Origin: Bacillota bacterium
Lineage (GTDB): Bacteria; Bacillota_E; Sulfobacillia; Sulfobacillales; Sulfobacillaceae
Assembly: GCA_021802375.1 (NCBI GenBank)
Contig: JAKAAL010000236.1
Location: forward strand, 1-6,612
Length of the DNA stretch: 6,612 nt
Reading direction: 5' to 3'
The translations under genes and the position numbers were made by a program. The notes beneath the pieces are model-generated. The model was not told where the DNA came from. It made no database searches and saw nothing but the letters and a program-made list of their open reading frames with translations. Each line of letters begins with the position of its first letter. Position 1 is the stretch's first letter. This document shows positions 553-6,612 of this stretch, piece by piece.

Positions 553-2040
553 TCACGATGATCCGCCTCGGTACTGGATCGTCACGGTGCCTGCTTGCAC
601 CTCGACCCGGTTGATATACTGTTTGACCAATTCCCGGCGTTCATGCACCGTCGCCGCGGCGCGAAAGGCGTCCGGCGCGGCCGCTAATTCAGCCATCAAG
701 CGTTGCGCTTCCTCCGTCGAGGGAGGGCGCTGCATCTCGTGAGCGAGCTGCTGAAGCCGTCCTTGGATCCGTTCCTTTTCCTGATCGAGGCGTGTTTGGG
801 CCTCTTGGAATTGCGGAATCGTAAAGACCCCTTGCAAGAGGGCGTCTTCCGCGCGTTGACGCATCGTCCGCAGTTCGTCGAGCCGGCGTTCGAGGCGGTG
901 GCGTTCCCGGAGAGTCTCATCGTAGGTGCGATCCTGCCCAATCTTCCATTCGGCCCACGCCTGGATCTCGCTTGGCGTAGGCTGGGCCATGTGCTGAAGC
1001 CAATGGTCGACCACCGCCTGTTCCACTTCGGCGACAGGGACGGTGTTCGGTTGACATAAGCCGGACATGTGATAACTGCGACAGGAATACCGGGGTTGGC
1101 GATTACGCCCCCCTTTAATGACCGTCATGGGTTTTCCACAGTATCCACAGAAAACCAGACCACTTAACAAGTAGGGTGAATCGGCACTGCGTCCACTGCG
1201 TTGTCCCCGCGATTGCATAATCCGTTGGGCTGTCTCCCATGTCACCCGGTCCACAATGGCGGGATGTGCGTCCCGAATGATCACCGCGTCCTCGCGGTGA
1301 CGCTTGTGGGTCACGCCGGTTCGTTCCTTGTAAAACTCTAACGCGCCATGTTGCAAATCCCCCACGTTGGCGGGTTTCCGCAACAGGCGCAAAATTTCGG
1401 TTGAAGCCCACTGACTGCGGCCTGTCTGCGTTGGGATGCCTTGGACGTTCAGGCGCTTGGCAATTTCCCGGGCACCAAGCCCCTCATGCACATACCACTC
1501 ATAAATTTGACGGACCACCGGCGCTTGTTCTGGATGCGGCTCGAGTTTATCCCCATTAAATTGGAATCCATAGGGGGGCCGTCCGCCATGATGCTTGCCG
1601 TGGCGTGCCCGTTCTGCCAACCCGCCTTTCACCTTGCGGGCCAACTGCTTGCGGAAATAATGGGCAAACACGGAGAGAATCATCATTTTGAGTTCACCGT
1701 CGGGAGTGGTCAAATCCAGATCATCGGCCACGGCGGCAAACCGACATCCCACCTTTTGCAAGTCTTCCAAAAATAACAAGGTCGATACCATATCTCGGGC
1801 GAGACGGTCGAGTTCATTGACAACGACCACACGAATCTGTTCGTGGTCGACCCGAGCTAAGATCTCTTGAAGCTCCCGATAATTCGATCCGCCCGATTGG
1901 ACATATTCCACCACATCAACCAAATCCCATCCTCGTTGAATGCAATATTCGGTAATCCGTTGCCGTTGATGGGGAATCGAAAATCGGTCGCCTGTCGCTT
2001 GTTCTTGTGTTGAAACGCGCGCCACGCCTAATGCCCGCAT
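553..2040 (-). CDS. Large serine recombinase (site-specific integrase)
   Basis: A 495-residue protein of the large serine recombinase family, which integrates and excises phages and conjugative or mobilisable elements by cutting both DNA strands through a serine linkage. The resolvase domain is at about 1-145: Arg8 and nucleophile Ser10 in ARVST, and D78-R79 with R82 in the LDRLARD motif, matching the catalytic set of this family. The GGRPPYGF linker (152-159) leads into the recombinase domain (about 160-275). A zinc ribbon follows, with Cys298, Cys301, Cys320 and Cys329, then a charged coiled coil at about 375-435. The length is normal (phage integrases are about 480-600). The ATG has AGGAGGA (2048-2054) 7 bases upstream. 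No active-site residue is missing, so the protein should be functional. The element it mobilises and its attachment sites are not evident. Confidence 0.93.
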   Translation of the reverse strand: MRALGVARVSTQEQATGDRFSIPHQRQRITEYCIQRGWDLVDVVEYVQSGGSNYRELQEILARVDHEQIRVVVVNELDRLARDMVSTLLFLEDLQKVGCRFAAVADDLDLTTPDGELKMMILSVFAHYFRKQLARKVKGGLAERARHGKHHGGRPPYGFQFNGDKLEPHPEQAPVVRQIYEWYVHEGLGAREIAKRLNVQGIPTQTGRSQWASTEILRLLRKPANVGDLQHGALEFYKERTGVTHKRHREDAVIIRDAHPAIVDRVTWETAQRIMQSRGQRSGRSADSPYLLSGLVFCGYCGKPMTVIKGGRNRQPRYSCRSYHMSGLCQPNTVPVAEVEQAVVDHWLQHMAQPTPSEIQAWAEWKIGQDRTYDETLRERHRLERRLDELRTMRQRAEDALLQGVFTIPQFQEAQTRLDQEKERIQGRLQQLAHEMQRPPSTEEAQRLMAELAAAPDAFRAAATVHERRELVKQYINRVEVQAGTVTIQYRGGSS

Positions 2041-2119: not shown

Positions 2120-2266
2120 ATGAAAGTCATCGTGGTCGGTACACTCACCCCAGATCAACAAAAGCAATTGGCCTATGATCTCTTAGAATTCTTTTATCAG
2201 GCACATCGTCACGCCGAAAAAACGTGCTCCGTGGCTCCGGCGTCGGACGACGCGTCCATGCGATGA
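2120..2266 (+). CDS. Small hypothetical protein, divergent from the recombinase
   Basis: A 48-residue ORF beginning MKVIVVGTLTPDQQKQ. I do not recognise the family. The first ten residues look like a short hydrophobic beta strand, followed by a probable amphipathic helix (about 10-35) and a polar tail. I chose the ATG at 2120 because it is preceded by AAAGGAG (2102-2108) and GGAGG (2112-2116); the same frame is open back to an ATG at 2039, but that one has no ribosome binding site and overlaps the recombinase start. The ORF is transcribed away from the recombinase, with 79 bases between the start codons, the place where recombination directionality factors or small regulators are sometimes found. 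That role is only a guess. The spacing of two purine tracts is not ideal, and the ORF is short enough to be chance. Confidence 0.45.
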   Translation: MKVIVVGTLTPDQQKQLAYDLLEFFYQAHRHAEKTCSVAPASDDASMR

Positions 2267-2555: not shown

Positions 2556-2744
2556 TCAGTAGCATGTATCGTCTGATGAAAAGGTATGAAATTGGAGCCA
2601 TTCTACGATGGCCTTAACGGACAAATGTTTCGCGCCTACGTCGACGACGAAATTTTCCATCTCAGAGCTTGAGCTATTCAACTCCAGGTCGTTGCATCGC
2701 AGGAACAAGCCCAACGCGGTAAAAGCCGTTCGCTTGTTTCCGTC
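2556..2744 (-). pseudogene. doc: doc-family toxin, 3' part (codons 71-132) separated by the insertion
   Basis: Read on the minus strand from 2744, the frame gives DGNKRTAFTALGLFL, then a helical stretch ending in VKAIVEWLQFHT and a TGA at 2556-2558. DGNKRTA is the second half of the Fic/Doc signature (HxFxDGNKR), and the rest matches the usual C-terminal half of death-on-curing toxins, including the closing WL helix. There is no start codon or ribosome binding site. The fragment begins exactly where the tnpB element ends and continues in frame from the 5' part at 4156-4364; together they make 132 residues, the normal length for Doc. Its sequence is undamaged apart from the separation. The same bases just outside the element are also the predicted guide source for TnpB. 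Confidence 0.88.
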
Positions 2745-2900
2745 GTCAACTGCTCGCCGCCTACGCTAACGCTTAGAGGCGGGAACTTGTAACTGAACTA
2801 GTGGTAAACGGTTTTCGCCTCCCACGTCACGGCAACTCAATTGCACATAATCGTTACAATAGGCTGGCTGACACACAGCCCGATCACCAGTGGCATGCAC
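2725..2900 (-). ncRNA. Predicted TnpB guide RNA (omega/reRNA) with doc-derived guide
   Basis: In IS200/IS605 elements, the RNA that TnpB uses is made from the end of tnpB through the right end of the element, with about 16-20 bases of flanking DNA as guide. Here the 139 bases between the tnpB stop and the element boundary (2883-2745) contain a 6-bp hairpin at 2757-2782 and would be the scaffold. The guide would start GACGGAAACAAGCGAA (2744-2729, minus strand), which is doc coding sequence. The 5' limit is arbitrary and expression is not shown; this is a family-based prediction. Confidence 0.5.
2757..2782. repeat. Right-end subterminal hairpin of the IS element
   Basis: CCGCCT (2757-2762) pairs with AGGCGG (2777-2782) around the loop ACGCTAACGCTTAG. 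On the minus strand it lies about 12 bases before the right boundary, similar to the spacing of transposase-recognised hairpins in IS200/IS605 elements. It would also be part of the guide RNA scaffold. Confidence 0.7.
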
Positions 2901-4023
2901 TAGCAATCTCGTTCTCATGGCGAATCTCCCGACCACGATCCCGAATGTTTCTTGCACCGACCAAATCATCATTCAACTTGTAATGGCATTTACGGCAGTC
3001 GAACCGATGCTTTTTCTTGTCTCGATTAGCCTTTTCGGTATGACCACATTTGGGACACTTTTGGCTCGTGTAATGGGATGACACGGACAATACCGAAATC
3101 CCCGCTGCGACAGCTTTGTAACGAATGAAGGATTCAAGTTGCGCAAAGGCCCATGAGAATCGCCAATACCGATTCCGTAACCGAACCGTGGTGTTTAAGT
3201 TCATGTTGGTCAGGTTTTCTAACACAATGCAAGGGTTATTCCCGGATGCCTTTGCAAACGCAATGATTTGATTGGCAACTTGATGGTTGACGTTCGTCAT
3301 AAAACGGTTTTCTCGCCCTGCAAGGTTCTTGAGTTTCCGCTTTGCCGAACGATTGCCTTGACGCTGTAAGTCTTTGCGTTGACGAACAAATCTTGCTTTT
3401 TTGTCCTTGATCGATCGTCCCTTGAAGAACATCGCTTTGTCATCCTGATTCGTAGCCACCGCCAAGAAGTTCATGCCACGATCTACCCCAATGATCGCAT
3501 CGCACTCTGTGAGACGTGGTTCAACGATCTCATACTTTACCGTGACATGTAGAGAATACCCCGTACGAGTAGGAACCAATTCCGCAGAACCAAACCGCCA
3601 ATCTTGACTGTGTAGATAAGGAAGATAGTTTTCACCAACAAGAAAAGGAACCTTGATTCGTTTATCAAGCGTACCGATAGACACGGTGTGCTCATTGACC
3701 TGTACGGTATAGTCTCGGTTATATGAATACACCAATTTGCTATGCGAGAATACAGCCAATTTCATTCTCTTGTTACTCTCGGCACTGGCGTAGGTACTTG
3801 CAACCGCCGAGCATACATTACACGCCATCTGTGATTTGAGTCCAAAGTCATTCCGCAACGGTCTATAGACCAATTGTTGTAACGTCTTAAAGGCCGATAT
3901 GCCGCCGTTCTGAAAGGCGACTTTGCTGGTAAAATTCAAGGCCCGACGGTTCGCTATCAATGTCGTATCCAATGCGTGCTTCTGTGCTGGAGAAACAAGA
4001 AGTTTCAAACGTATCGTCCGCAC
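2884..4023 (-). CDS. tnpB: TnpB RNA-guided nuclease (IS200/IS605 OrfB)
   Basis: A 379-residue TnpB, the transposon-encoded ancestor of Cas12 nucleases; characterised members cut DNA next to a target-adjacent motif as directed by a guide RNA from the element's right end. The N-terminal helical/beta region is at about 1-170. The split RuvC active site is complete: Asp181 in IIGVDRG, Glu269 in IVLENL, and Asp353 in LNDDLVGARNI. A zinc ribbon sits between the last two with Cys323, Cys326, Cys343 and Cys346. The length is normal. The GTG start gives the typical N-terminus MRTIRLKLL, but has no good ribosome binding site of its own. Instead, a 4-codon ORF (ATG at 4037, AGAGGG at 4047-4042) ends in a TAG overlapping this GTG, so translation may be coupled. 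A TATGAT box at 4070-4065 could be its -10. The gene looks intact and active. Confidence 0.93.
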   Translation of the reverse strand: MRTIRLKLLVSPAQKHALDTTLIANRRALNFTSKVAFQNGGISAFKTLQQLVYRPLRNDFGLKSQMACNVCSAVASTYASAESNKRMKLAVFSHSKLVYSYNRDYTVQVNEHTVSIGTLDKRIKVPFLVGENYLPYLHSQDWRFGSAELVPTRTGYSLHVTVKYEIVEPRLTECDAIIGVDRGMNFLAVATNQDDKAMFFKGRSIKDKKARFVRQRKDLQRQGNRSAKRKLKNLAGRENRFMTNVNHQVANQIIAFAKASGNNPCIVLENLTNMNLNTTVRLRNRYWRFSWAFAQLESFIRYKAVAAGISVLSVSSHYTSQKCPKCGHTEKANRDKKKHRFDCRKCHYKLNDDLVGARNIRDRGREIRHENEIASACHW

Positions 4024-4037
4024 TAATTCCGTGCCAT
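4023..4037 (-). promoter_or_regulatory. Four-codon leader ORF overlapping the tnpB start
   Basis: On the minus strand, ATG-GCA-CGG-AAT-TAG (4037-4023) has a good ribosome binding site, AGAGGG (4047-4042), 4 bases upstream. Its TAG shares the final G with the GTG start of tnpB. This is the geometry of stop-start reinitiation and would explain how a tnpB with no Shine-Dalgarno sequence of its own is translated. It could instead be chance. Confidence 0.35.
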
Positions 4038-4105
4038 TTCACCCTCTTTCAGTAGCATGATCGTATCATACAATTTACTGAACGGAAAAAATATCGTGGC
4101 ATTCC

Positions 4106-4139
4106 TCCTCCACTTACGCTATCGCTTAGAAGTGGGGGA
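4106..4139. repeat. Left-end subterminal hairpin of the IS element
   Basis: The 10-base arm 4106-4115 (core CCACTT) pairs with 4130-4139 (core AAGTGG), with one T-G wobble, around the loop ACGCTATCGCTTAG. The loop differs from the right-end hairpin at one base. It lies about 16 bases inside the left boundary (4155), consistent with a Y1-transposase recognition hairpin. Confidence 0.72.
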
Positions 4140-4155
4140 CTCCTGCCATCCCCCG

Positions 4156-4364
4156 TTGAAAAGGCTGATGGAGGTCTAACGAGTGGAGTAGTACGGCGGC
4201 TTTTCCAGAACAGACGAATAGAGATCGTCTCCGGCCATCGTGGCCTGCGGTCGGGCGATCGCCGATTCGAGTCCTGTCAGGTTTAAAACGCCATGAGCGC
4301 CGCCGAATTGTTCAATCACACGGAAGTGAATGAAAAGGATTTCCTGAATGGTCAAATATCTCAT
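4156..4364 (-). pseudogene. doc: doc-family toxin, 5' part (codons 1-70), frameshifted and cut by IS
   Basis: The N-terminal half of a death-on-curing (Doc/Fic fold) toxin; characterised Doc phosphorylates EF-Tu and blocks translation. The frame starts MRYLTIQEILFIH and contains the family hallmarks ESAIARPQ and DLY. The start ATG overlaps the stop of the AbrB-type antitoxin (ATGA), so the pair was a translationally coupled operon. After Lys55 (AAG ending at 4200) the frame shifts: one missing G turns the expected AAVLLHSL into PPYYSTR and a TAG. Restoring the G gives AAVLLHSLDLHQPFQ up to the IS boundary at 4156, exactly 70 codons. The residue where the Fic catalytic His is expected is Gln67 (CAG, 4167-4165). 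The missing G could in principle be a sequencing error; the insertion alone is enough to destroy the gene. Confidence 0.88.
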
Positions 4365-4600
4365 CGGTCAGCTAATCGCCTTAGTACATCCGCATACTCG
4401 GCCACAAAACGGTCAACGGCTTGCACGAAGTTCGGCGTAATATCTCGCGAAGCCTCTCTTAAGGGCTTTACGATAATTTCTCCCTTCTCGTTTCGAATGA
4501 GCTCCACCGGTTGATCTTCGAGATTCATCTCACGTACCCAGTCAGAAGGAATCGACACGGCATAACTATTGCCAGCCTTAAACACTTTGCGAAATTGCAC
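4361..4600 (-). CDS. AbrB/SpoVT-fold antitoxin of the disrupted doc locus
   Basis: A 79-residue addiction-module antidote. Residues 1-45 form the swapped-hairpin AbrB DNA-binding fold (FRKVFKAGNSYAVSIPSDWV, then a beta strand ending IIVKPL). The C-terminal helix (about 50-79, VDRFVAEYADVLRRLADR) is the part expected to bind and neutralise the toxin. I chose the GTG at 4600 because AAGGGA (4616-4611) lies 10 bases upstream; the frame also opens at a GTG at 4609, but the same site would be only 1 base away. The stop overlaps the doc ATG. Such antitoxins usually repress their own promoter with the toxin as co-repressor. The reading frame is intact although its toxin partner is destroyed, so it would now be an orphan antitoxin. 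Confidence 0.88.
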   Translation of the reverse strand: MQFRKVFKAGNSYAVSIPSDWVREMNLEDQPVELIRNEKGEIIVKPLREASRDITPNFVQAVDRFVAEYADVLRRLADR

Positions 4601-4629
4601 GCGAGTCACTTCCCTTCATTATTCAAACA

Positions 4630-4773: not shown

Positions 4774-5109
4774 CTAAGATGTGGTGAAGGTCGACGACTC
4801 ACCATATACCCAACGCCCCTTCTGCAGGATTTCTCGCATAACTGGATTTCCTTCAGCTACTGCCTGTTGCAGTTCTTCCGGGGTTCGCACCAAAATATCC
4901 GACGCGATGATACGCGGTCTTAGGGCCATTTGATATTTGATAGCCCGTTGGCGAGGAGGATCTGCATTCTGCTCAATGACCAAGAAATCGAAGTCGCTCT
5001 CGTCGTTCGCCGTGTGGTTTGCTTCCGACCCAAAGACTACGATGGCTTCCGGATGGCCGACTGCCACCATTTTCTGAATGTAATCGTGAAGAATTGCGCT
5101 CCGGTCCAT
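4774..5109 (-). CDS. MNT-type minimal nucleotidyltransferase (antitoxin-like)
   Basis: A 111-residue protein of the DNA polymerase beta-like nucleotidyltransferase superfamily, minimal MNT type. Numbering from the chosen ATG, the nucleotide-binding Gly27-Ser28 is followed by Asp39 and Asp41 (GSx10DxD, in ESDFDFLV), and a third acidic residue Asp71 comes on the next strand (ASDILV), completing the catalytic triad. Family members transfer NMP or AMP to partner proteins; those paired with HEPN toxins AMPylate and silence them. I chose the ATG at 5109 because GAGGGG (5122-5117) lies 7 bases upstream; an in-frame ATG at 5124 has no ribosome binding site. A TATACT at 5141-5136 may be its -10. No HEPN gene is visible on either side, so it is a stand-alone copy or has lost its partner. 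Confidence 0.85.
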   Translation of the reverse strand: MDRSAILHDYIQKMVAVGHPEAIVVFGSEANHTANDESDFDFLVIEQNADPPRQRAIKYQMALRPRIIASDILVRTPEELQQAVAEGNPVMREILQKGRWVYGESSTFTTS

Positions 5110-5458
5110 GACGATTCCCCTCATATAGTTTTTTTAGTATATCACGCTTCAAGGTCGCACCAGAATTTCGGAATCCATCGCGCCACCGACAATGACGCGC
5201 TGGATTCCGATTCCGCGAGCATCAAACCGGTCTAGAAGCCGCTATTCATCCTTGGCATCCTCGGGATGTTACCAAATTTGGTGTAAACTTTATTCGACAC
5301 ACCTTGGTAACGGTCAAGGAGATTGGCCCAAAACCGATGTTAGTAATGATGCCGTCCCGCGTTTAAGCCGTCGTCGTGGAGCTCCGCGAATTACTTTCCA
5401 GCACGGGTTTAGGGGTCCAAAGGAGGCGTTGCATTGAGAAACCGTCTTTAACTCCCCA
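5110..5458. other. Gene-poor stretch between the MFS and nucleotidyltransferase genes
   Basis: No intact gene is evident. The most gene-like part is an open plus-strand frame at 5196-5366, described separately. A near-perfect ribosome binding site AAAGGAGG (5419-5426) precedes a TTG at 5434 by 7 bases, but that frame stops after five codons. There is no clear terminator for the minus-strand MFS gene. Confidence 0.45.
5196..5366 (+). pseudogene. Gene-like fragment of unknown family
   Basis: Between a TGA at 5193-5195 and a TAA at 5364-5366 the plus strand is open for 56 codons with protein-like content: HPWHPRDVTKFGVNFIRHTL, then a hydrophobic strand (MLVMM). There is no start codon near its beginning and no ribosome binding site, so if real it is the broken C-terminal end of a gene. 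I do not recognise it. A longer plus-strand frame (ATG at 5192 to 5437) overlaps it, but its composition looks less like protein. It may be chance. Confidence 0.25.
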
Positions 5459-6612
5459 TTACGTGAGTTCGACCTGTGTGAAATCCAATTGGTGAAACGG
5501 TCGGGTGAGGAGAACGGTTACCACGCCGACAAATCCTAAGACCGCAAAGACTAAAATCGTCGATGTTACCCCCAGCCGATGGGCCAACATCCCCGAGAAA
5601 AAGTAACTGATGCTGGACACGCCGGTAGACGCCGCGACTAACACCGCCCGCACACGCCCTAATTTCTCTCGCGGCGTATAGTGTTGAAGAATGGTGATAA
5701 ACGGAATGTTAAACAAGCTGATGGCCGCGCCCACCCCTAACAAGGCGATCAGACTGGCGTCGATATGGCGACTGAGACCAAAGAGAGCCATGAATACCGA
5801 TTCCCCTACGGTGGCCAGGCCTAAGTACATCGGGAGCAACGAGCTGGCCATGCGGAATTTACTGAACACCAATGCACATAACATTCCGCCTCCTGTCACG
5901 GCGATCTCCAAGTCAGCATATTGTTGGGACCCGCCATGGAGGACATCCAACGCATAGGGGGCCATCAACGTGATGGTGGGGGTAATGGCGATGTTGGAGA
6001 ACACCGCCAATCCCAGCACCGAAACTAACCATTTTTTGCCTAGGACAAAGGTGATGCCGTCACCCCAGGGGGCCATCAGGCCGGTTTTGGCGATGGCTGT
6101 CATCGGGTCGTGCGGTGTCCGCAAACTCCCGAGCAGACCGAATCCCAGAAAGTAGCCCAGACTCTCCACAAAAAGAATCCGGCCCACACTCAGCAGCGAT
6201 GCCGTGACCCCGCCTAAAGCCAATCCGATCATGCTGCCAAACTGATACACGATACTTATTAAGGCGTTCGCGCGGGAGAGGTCGTGCTCGTCCACGATGT
6301 CTCGGATCAGTTTGGTGCTGGAGAGTTCATACAGGGCCCCGAGTGCGACCAAAATGACTGACATCACCATGAGCCACAATAAGGAGATGTGGGCAAGAGA
6401 AATCAACAAACCGAACCCCAGTAATAAACCGCCTCGTGCGAATAACAGGGTTTGCATGAGGGGCTTCGCGGGGAAGCGGTCGCTCAGAGGGCCCAACACC
6501 AGATTAAAAACAAATCGCGCAAAGTACGTCAACGCAATGAGCACCGCGAGAGACGTGACGCCGACCGTTTTCGAATAGGCCCAGTAAATCGCAATGTACG
6601 TCACGTTGGACC
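5459..6612 (-). CDS. MFS exporter, N-terminus beyond the window
   Basis: A 12-helix major facilitator superfamily transporter of the EntS / macrolide-efflux-like group, in the inner membrane, probably exporting a small molecule by proton antiport. The visible part is about 384 residues, and the frame stays open to the window edge with SNVTYIAIYW before the first possible GTG (6604), so roughly the first 25-30 residues are missing. MFS motif A (GPLSDRF, with Asp at about residue 42 from that GTG) follows the second helix. The half-repeat signature LSRANALIS, then GLALGG lies mid-N-terminal half, and FNIPFITILQHYTPREKLGRV matches the C-domain signature of this group. Hydrophobic helices alternate with short loops throughout. 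The TAA is at 5461-5459. Substrate cannot be read from the sequence, and neighbours give no hint. Confidence 0.88.
   Translation of the reverse strand, partial: SNVTYIAIYWAYSKTVGVTSLAVLIALTYFARFVFNLVLGPLSDRFPAKPLMQTLLFARGGLLLGFGLLISLAHISLLWLMVMSVILVALGALYELSSTKLIRDIVDEHDLSRANALISIVYQFGSMIGLALGGVTASLLSVGRILFVESLGYFLGFGLLGSLRTPHDPMTAIAKTGLMAPWGDGITFVLGKKWLVSVLGLAVFSNIAITPTITLMAPYALDVLHGGSQQYADLEIAVTGGGMLCALVFSKFRMASSLLPMYLGLATVGESVFMALFGLSRHIDASLIALLGVGAAISLFNIPFITILQHYTPREKLGRVRAVLVAASTGVSSISYFFSGMLAHRLGVTSTILVFAVLGFVGVVTVLLTRPFHQLDFTQVELT

What the first reader, a model, noticed from the sequence alone, without database searches (positions are those of the whole stretch)
2556..4364. A doc toxin gene split into two fragments 1.4 kb apart by a tnpB element
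Visible directly: the minus-strand frame from 4364 encodes the Doc N-terminus and stops being Doc at 4156; the frame from 2744 resumes with DGNKRTAFTALGLFL and ends at 2556. Joining them gives 209+189 bases, which with one restored G is exactly 133 codons including stop. The 3' fragment has no start codon and would be missed by gene callers, so an automated annotation would probably show only a short truncated toxin and an unannotated gap.
Basis: seen in the sequence. Interest (0 to 1): 0.7.

Follow-up and report, generated by a model that had tools for sequence, protein, structure and literature searches.

The report
Toxin gene split by tnpB element
A bacterial growth-arrest toxin gene (doc) has been cut in two, inside its active-site motif, by a small selfish DNA element carrying the RNA-guided nuclease TnpB; this is an ordinary kind of gene inactivation with a few neat details.

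Summary
Each piece matches Doc on its own: 4179-4364(-) hits PF02661 positions 1-53, 2559-2744(-) hits TIGR01550 positions 70-121 of 122, both just below curated cut-offs. Of 120 listed Doc homologues, 117 have exactly 15 residues between where the pieces end and resume; the window has 44 bases there, one short, and the other frame reads as Doc. The insert, 2745-4155, is a tnpB-only IS200/IS605-type element. Relatives share its ends, TTCAA| left and GTTGAC| right. Its right end has a covarying omegaRNA-like fold; its predicted guide is the doc codons starting DGNKR. The insertion splits the Fic motif HPFx|DGNKR. The toxin carries three lesions: a one-base frameshift, a changed motif histidine (His in 118 of 120) and the insertion. 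The antitoxin frame is open. Intact antitoxin-doc pairs exist in Alicyclobacillus and an intact Doc in Sulfobacillus. One point was overstated: the 3' piece has a TTG start. New member of a known kind; modest interest. Doc was not mended or joined in any call.

The parts
4361..4609 (-). AbrB/MazE-type antitoxin gene (82 aa), open frame, overlapping the doc start by 4 bases
   Evidence: PF04014 E=2.3e-12; TIGR02609 doc_partner E=5.3e-11, below its cut-off; 62-70% identical antitoxins beside doc in six distinct loci
4176..4364 (-). doc 5' piece as read from its ATG: codons 1-54 in Doc frame, then a frameshift and an early stop (62 aa)
   Evidence: PF02661 profile 1-53, E=0.0021; 76-85% identical to the 14 best Docs printed
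4156..4203 (-). 16 codons of doc in the shifted frame, up to the insertion; 3 residues seen in none of 120 Docs, including the motif histidine position
2745..4155 (-). tnpB-only IS200/IS605-type element, 1411 bp, inserted 3' of TTCAA; no target duplication seen
   Evidence: ends shared with relatives; TTCAAC at 10 of 10 distinct left ends; doc DNA runs TTTCAA directly into GAC in 4 of 6 close relatives
4107..4155 (-). left end with a subterminal hairpin (hairpin judged by eye)
   Evidence: sequence conserved in relatives
2884..4023 (-). tnpB, GTG start, 379 aa; RuvC residues D181, E269, D353 present
   Evidence: NF040570 guided_TnpB E=6e-52; PF07282, PF01385; alignment with 114 homologues
2745..2894 (-). 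right end with predicted omegaRNA scaffold, 6 helices
   Evidence: 11 of 42 pairs with change on both sides in 6 sequences; 0 of 500 shuffles reach it
2729..2744 (-). predicted 16-nt guide: the doc codons starting DGNKR
   Evidence: position next to the right end; guide rule from PMC8612924 (passages)
2556..2744 (-). doc 3' piece, resuming at DGNKRTA, 62 codons plus stop
   Evidence: TIGR01550 profile 70-121 of 122, E=1.4e-9

Best explanation
Shown: an antitoxin-doc operon carries a 1411-bp tnpB-only IS200/IS605-type element between doc codons 70 and 71, inside the Fic motif, and doc also carries a one-base frameshift and a changed motif histidine just upstream. Inferred: the host is a Sulfobacillus-like acidophile; a Y1 transposase acting in trans pasted the element as single-stranded DNA 3' of TTCAA on the doc coding strand, without target duplication; the toxin is dead and the antitoxin is left without a partner; TnpB with the omegaRNA from the right end would take the adjoining doc codons as guide and cut doc copies that lack the element next to TTCAA, which would hold the insertion in place as for other TnpB elements.
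For: Independent Doc matches of both pieces. Constant 15-residue spacing in 117 of 120 homologues. Antitoxin-doc neighbours in relatives. Element ends shared with copies in other contexts and TTCAAC at 10 of 10 distinct left ends. TnpB catalytic residues and covarying right-end fold. Four of six close relatives keep TTTCAA followed directly by GAC at the same codons. TnpB guide and TAM rules: PMC8612924 (passages). Mutating the motif His makes Doc nontoxic: PMC2686095 (passages).
Against: No uninterrupted allele from the same species with the same flanks was found; no whole genome is held. TnpB carries N224 where 114 of 114 homologues have T, N270 where 105 of 114 have D, and three extra C-terminal residues against the 17 closest, so its activity is uncertain. 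The single-sequence fold of the right end is only mildly unusual (z -1.72; 12 of 200 shuffles fold as well), and one covariation measure, further pair types, is not above shuffles (182 of 500). Of five relatives compared, the best has one mismatch to the guide in the first 16 bases (position 6) and the others two to four.
Confidence: 0.93

Rival explanations
1. The split is an assembly artefact: two contigs or repeats joined wrongly around a repeated element.
For: No whole genome is held for the window, no reads were seen, and tnpB elements are often repeated (recalled). The TnpB cluster has 6 members on 2 contigs.
Against: The doc pieces resume at adjacent codons as judged by relatives and the junctions fall exactly at element ends defined by other copies; a chimera would not be expected to do both.
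Confidence: 0.03
2. The pieces are two separate, still useful genes (a short Doc-like N-terminal protein and a short C-terminal protein), not one broken gene.
For: The 5' piece has its own ATG and stop; the 3' piece has a TTG start.
Against: The 5' piece ends in a frameshifted tail; the active-site motif is split; residues at positions 64, 66 and 67 are unseen in 120 Docs.
Confidence: 0.02
3. The one-base frameshift and the odd residues beside the left junction are sequencing errors, and the only real lesion is the insertion.
For: All lie within about 50 bases; 3 of 4 unseen residues fall in the 16-residue stretch (chance 0.007, post hoc). No reads were available.
Against: Substitutions that keep the frame are not the usual form of an indel error (general knowledge); codons 1-54 hold no unseen residue.
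Confidence: 0.2

Closest known systems
IS200/IS605 family, tnpB-only elements (called IS1341-type, a label recalled, from no call); TnpB of ISDra2
   Same: TnpB alone on the element, left end 3' of a fixed target motif, no target duplication seen, right-end RNA fold, RuvC D-E-D
   Different: Target motif TTCAA rather than TTGAT (ISDra2) or TTAC (IS608) (PMC8612924 passages); no tnpA on the element; TnpB activity untested and one invariant residue changed
Death-on-curing (Doc) family toxin with AbrB/MazE-type antitoxin (TIGR01550 / TIGR02609), as annotated in Alicyclobacillus sp. ALC3
   Same: Gene order, 4-base overlap, spacing of conserved blocks
   Different: Split by an element, frameshifted, and motif histidine changed
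TnpB-driven spread of insertion sequences in plasmids (PMC11870625, abstract and outline seen)
   Same: The guide records the insertion site, here doc codons
   Different: No spread or cutting was shown here

Membership tests
IS200/IS605, tnpB-only element | TnpB family protein | tested here: met
   NF040570 177 bits against cut-off 100
IS200/IS605, tnpB-only element | Fixed target motif at the left end, no target duplication | tested here: met
   TTCAAC at 10 of 10 distinct left ends besides the window (20 rows, repeats of one place and two matches inside right ends dropped); doc DNA and spacing in relatives leave no duplicated bases
IS200/IS605, tnpB-only element | Subterminal hairpins at both ends | tested here: inconclusive
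   right end folded and covarying; left end conserved in sequence but its hairpin was judged by eye, not folded
IS605 with its own transposase | Y1 transposase tnpA on the element | tested here: not met
   besides tnpB the longest start-to-stop frame within 2745-4155 is 68 aa; ISDra2 TnpA has 140 aa (PMC8612924)
Active TnpB nuclease | RuvC catalytic D, E, D and zinc-finger cysteines | tested here: met
   D181, E269, D353; C323, C326, C343, C346
Active TnpB nuclease | RNA-guided cleavage | not testable with these tools
   needs a bench assay
Doc toxin | N- and C-terminal Doc family match | tested here: met
   each piece apart; both scores are below the curated cut-offs, as expected of halves
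Doc toxin (functional) | Intact motif HPFx[D/E]GN[G/K]R in one frame | tested here: not met
   motif split by the element, upstream frame shifted, His position changed; motif as given in PMC2686095
Doc antitoxin partner (TIGR02609) | Score at the curated cut-off | tested here: inconclusive
   42.7 bits against 55.9 over the full model; PF04014 above its cut-off

The most novel reading that the evidence does not exclude
By landing in the Fic motif, the element has acquired a guide for codons that are nearly invariant among Doc toxins, so its TnpB would cut doc genes of relatives as well as the empty allele and act as an RNA-guided remover of toxin-antitoxin addiction genes.
Probability: 0.05. 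Interest if true: 0.65.

Novelty: new member of a known kind. Interest (0 to 1): 0.28.

Why it matters
It is a clean, base-resolved case of an IS200/IS605-type insertion, in which intact relatives serve as the empty site and define both element ends and the target motif TTCAA for this TnpB group. It also shows a toxin-antitoxin pair that has lost its toxin but keeps an open antitoxin frame, and a TnpB whose predicted guide is a conserved enzyme motif. None of this changes current understanding.

Tried and rejected
No whole genome is held for the window, so copies of the element or a second doc allele in the same genome could not be sought. A search for the right end followed by Fic-motif codons found 0 of 398 genomes of the class of the Alicyclobacillus genome G001 (Sulfobacillus could not be reached by handle) and 7 viral contigs, none with a TnpB relative: taken as chance matches. 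The viral scans returned no relative of TnpB or of the Sulfobacillus Doc P0036. PLSDB gave one record. The MFS gene as a host marker gave only distant hits in that class (315 of 398 genomes, best 38%) but 74% over 83% of its length to a Sulfobacillus thermosulfidooxidans protein. Rfam: no match at gathering score; the one weak hit in the right end, on the other strand (E=0.77), was taken as chance. PADLOC Cas12f hits of TnpB I read as shared ancestry, not a CRISPR system. Ten further small frames outside the named genes gave no Pfam hit at E<=0.1. Paper searches: 1 listed of 1, 8 of 8, 15 of 29, 8 of 189, 8 of 58, 4 of 4, 5 of 5. Judged by titles and abstract starts, no listed paper seemed to describe this case.

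Full report
The observation. On the minus strand an antitoxin gene (4609-4361) overlaps by four bases an ATG at 4364 that opens a 62-codon frame ending at 4176. That piece matches PF02661 over profile positions 1-53 (E=0.0021, below the gathering score). A second piece, 2744-2556, matches TIGR01550 DOC_P1 over positions 70-121 of 122 (E=1.4e-9, just below the cut-off). Between them lies a 379-aa TnpB (NF040570, 177 bits against a cut-off of 100). The pieces were searched apart; no call or script joined or mended the gene.

Are the pieces one gene? An antitoxin-doc pair is annotated on an Alicyclobacillus sp. ALC3 plasmid with the same 4-base overlap. Antitoxin searches matched 3 of 7 genomes or records behind my loci, 20 of 200 genomes of one class and 11 of 41 of one family; these sets overlap and most matches are weak (27-34% identity). 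In the six closest distinct loci (L017, L019, L020, L042, L043, L048; L018 and L041 repeat L017), antitoxin identity is 62-70% and both doc pieces lie in order beside it; in five of the six they are 45 bases apart in one frame, and in L020 46 apart, out of frame. Of 929 Doc homologues found with the L042 Doc as query, the best 120 were listed and used. At a lenient limit both pieces match all 120, and 117 of 120 have exactly 15 residues between them; the other three have 8, 9 and 17. The window has 44 bases in that place, one short of 45, and there the other frame reads as Doc: a match in 115 of 120, with 81% identity to 13 of the 14 best-scoring Docs printed and 75% to the other. So a one-base frameshift precedes the insertion.

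Further lesions. On an alignment of the 120 Docs, using 54, 16 and 51 residues of the three stretches, the first holds no residue unseen in the others, the last holds one, and the 16 next to the insertion hold three, among them the motif histidine position (His in 118 of 120) and the preceding Asn (116 of 120). In leave-one-out controls no intact Doc had more than two unseen residues in that 16-residue stretch, though some reach 7 and 9 in the longer ones. The clustering has a chance of 0.007, computed after the fact. Mutating this histidine makes Doc nontoxic (PMC2686095, passages seen). The order of the lesions cannot be told, and each alone would be expected to silence the toxin (inference). 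Sequencing error in the odd stretch is not excluded.

The element. Copies at 67-83% DNA identity in Alicyclobacillus mengziensis and in unclassified Bacillota MAGs share its ends. At the left, TTCAAC is present in 10 of 10 distinct relatives; two of these are mini-elements. At the right, GTTGAC closes the window copy and those of L001, L002, L004, L011 and L012; L061 and L064 share it, while L062, L066, L067, L059 and L069 carry near variants. Of the six close docs, four (L041, L042, L043, L048) run TTTCAA directly into GAC; L019 and L020 differ in the preceding codon. That places the element at 2745-4155 with no duplicated target bases and splits the Fic motif HPFx|DGNKR. No other frame in the element is long enough for a Y1 transposase, so transposition would need one in trans (inference). 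The right end folds into six helices; in six sequences 94.3% of cells pair, 11 of 42 pairs show change on both sides, no shuffle of 500 reaches either, and slid partners fail, but the count of further pair types is not above shuffles (182 of 500) and the structure was derived from this same alignment. The single-sequence fold is only mildly unusual (z -1.72; 12 of 200 shuffles as good).

How it would work. In ISDra2 the TnpB RNA is the right end plus about 16 flanking bases, and the target motif licenses cutting (PMC8612924, passages seen). By that rule the guide here is the doc sequence from codon 71 on. On an alignment with 114 of the 119 other listed homologues (5 shorter than 340 aa dropped; 429 were found), TnpB keeps D181, E269, D353 and its zinc cysteines, but has N224 where 114 of 114 have T, N270 where 105 have D, and three more C-terminal residues than the 17 closest (stops of L001, L002 and L004). 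It may or may not be active. Five relatives' docs differ from the guide at one to four of the first 16 positions. Spread of insertion sequences by TnpB is known (PMC11870625, abstract and outline seen).

Host. The MFS gene at 5459-6604 is 74% identical over 83% of its length to one of Sulfobacillus thermosulfidooxidans, and Docs named from S. thermosulfidooxidans and S. benefaciens are among the homologues, the former third among the best matches to the pieces. I take the source to be a Sulfobacillus-like acidophile; this is inference.

Verdict. Confirmed and ordinary in kind: an IS200/IS605-type insertion that splits a toxin gene which was, or has since been, damaged in other ways too. The point worth keeping is that the insertion sits in the active-site motif, which makes the predicted guide a conserved one.

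Noticed in passing
4774-5124 (-): A MntA-like nucleotidyltransferase (PF18765 E=3.3e-07; NF047752 below cut-off). No HEPN partner turned up among ten further small frames scanned (not all frames); possibly a second partnerless antitoxin next to the dead doc pair.
   Followed up: partly
553-2040 (-) and 2120-2266 (+): Large serine recombinase of 495 aa (PF00239, PF07508, PF13408), with a small divergent frame just upstream that has no Pfam hit at E<=0.1 (scanned from 2039).
   Followed up: partly
   Followed up: partly
L020, doc from 1743: The doc next to the antitoxin in Alicyclobacillus mengziensis also changes frame just after the Fic motif (99 aa), so doc decay is not confined to this window.
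   Followed up: no
4156-4203: Three residues unseen in 120 Docs and a frameshift cluster directly upstream of the left junction; cause unknown.
   Followed up: partly
5168-5210: Inverted repeat, arms of 18 bases, 89% complementary, 7 bases apart, between the nucleotidyltransferase and MFS genes.
   Followed up: no
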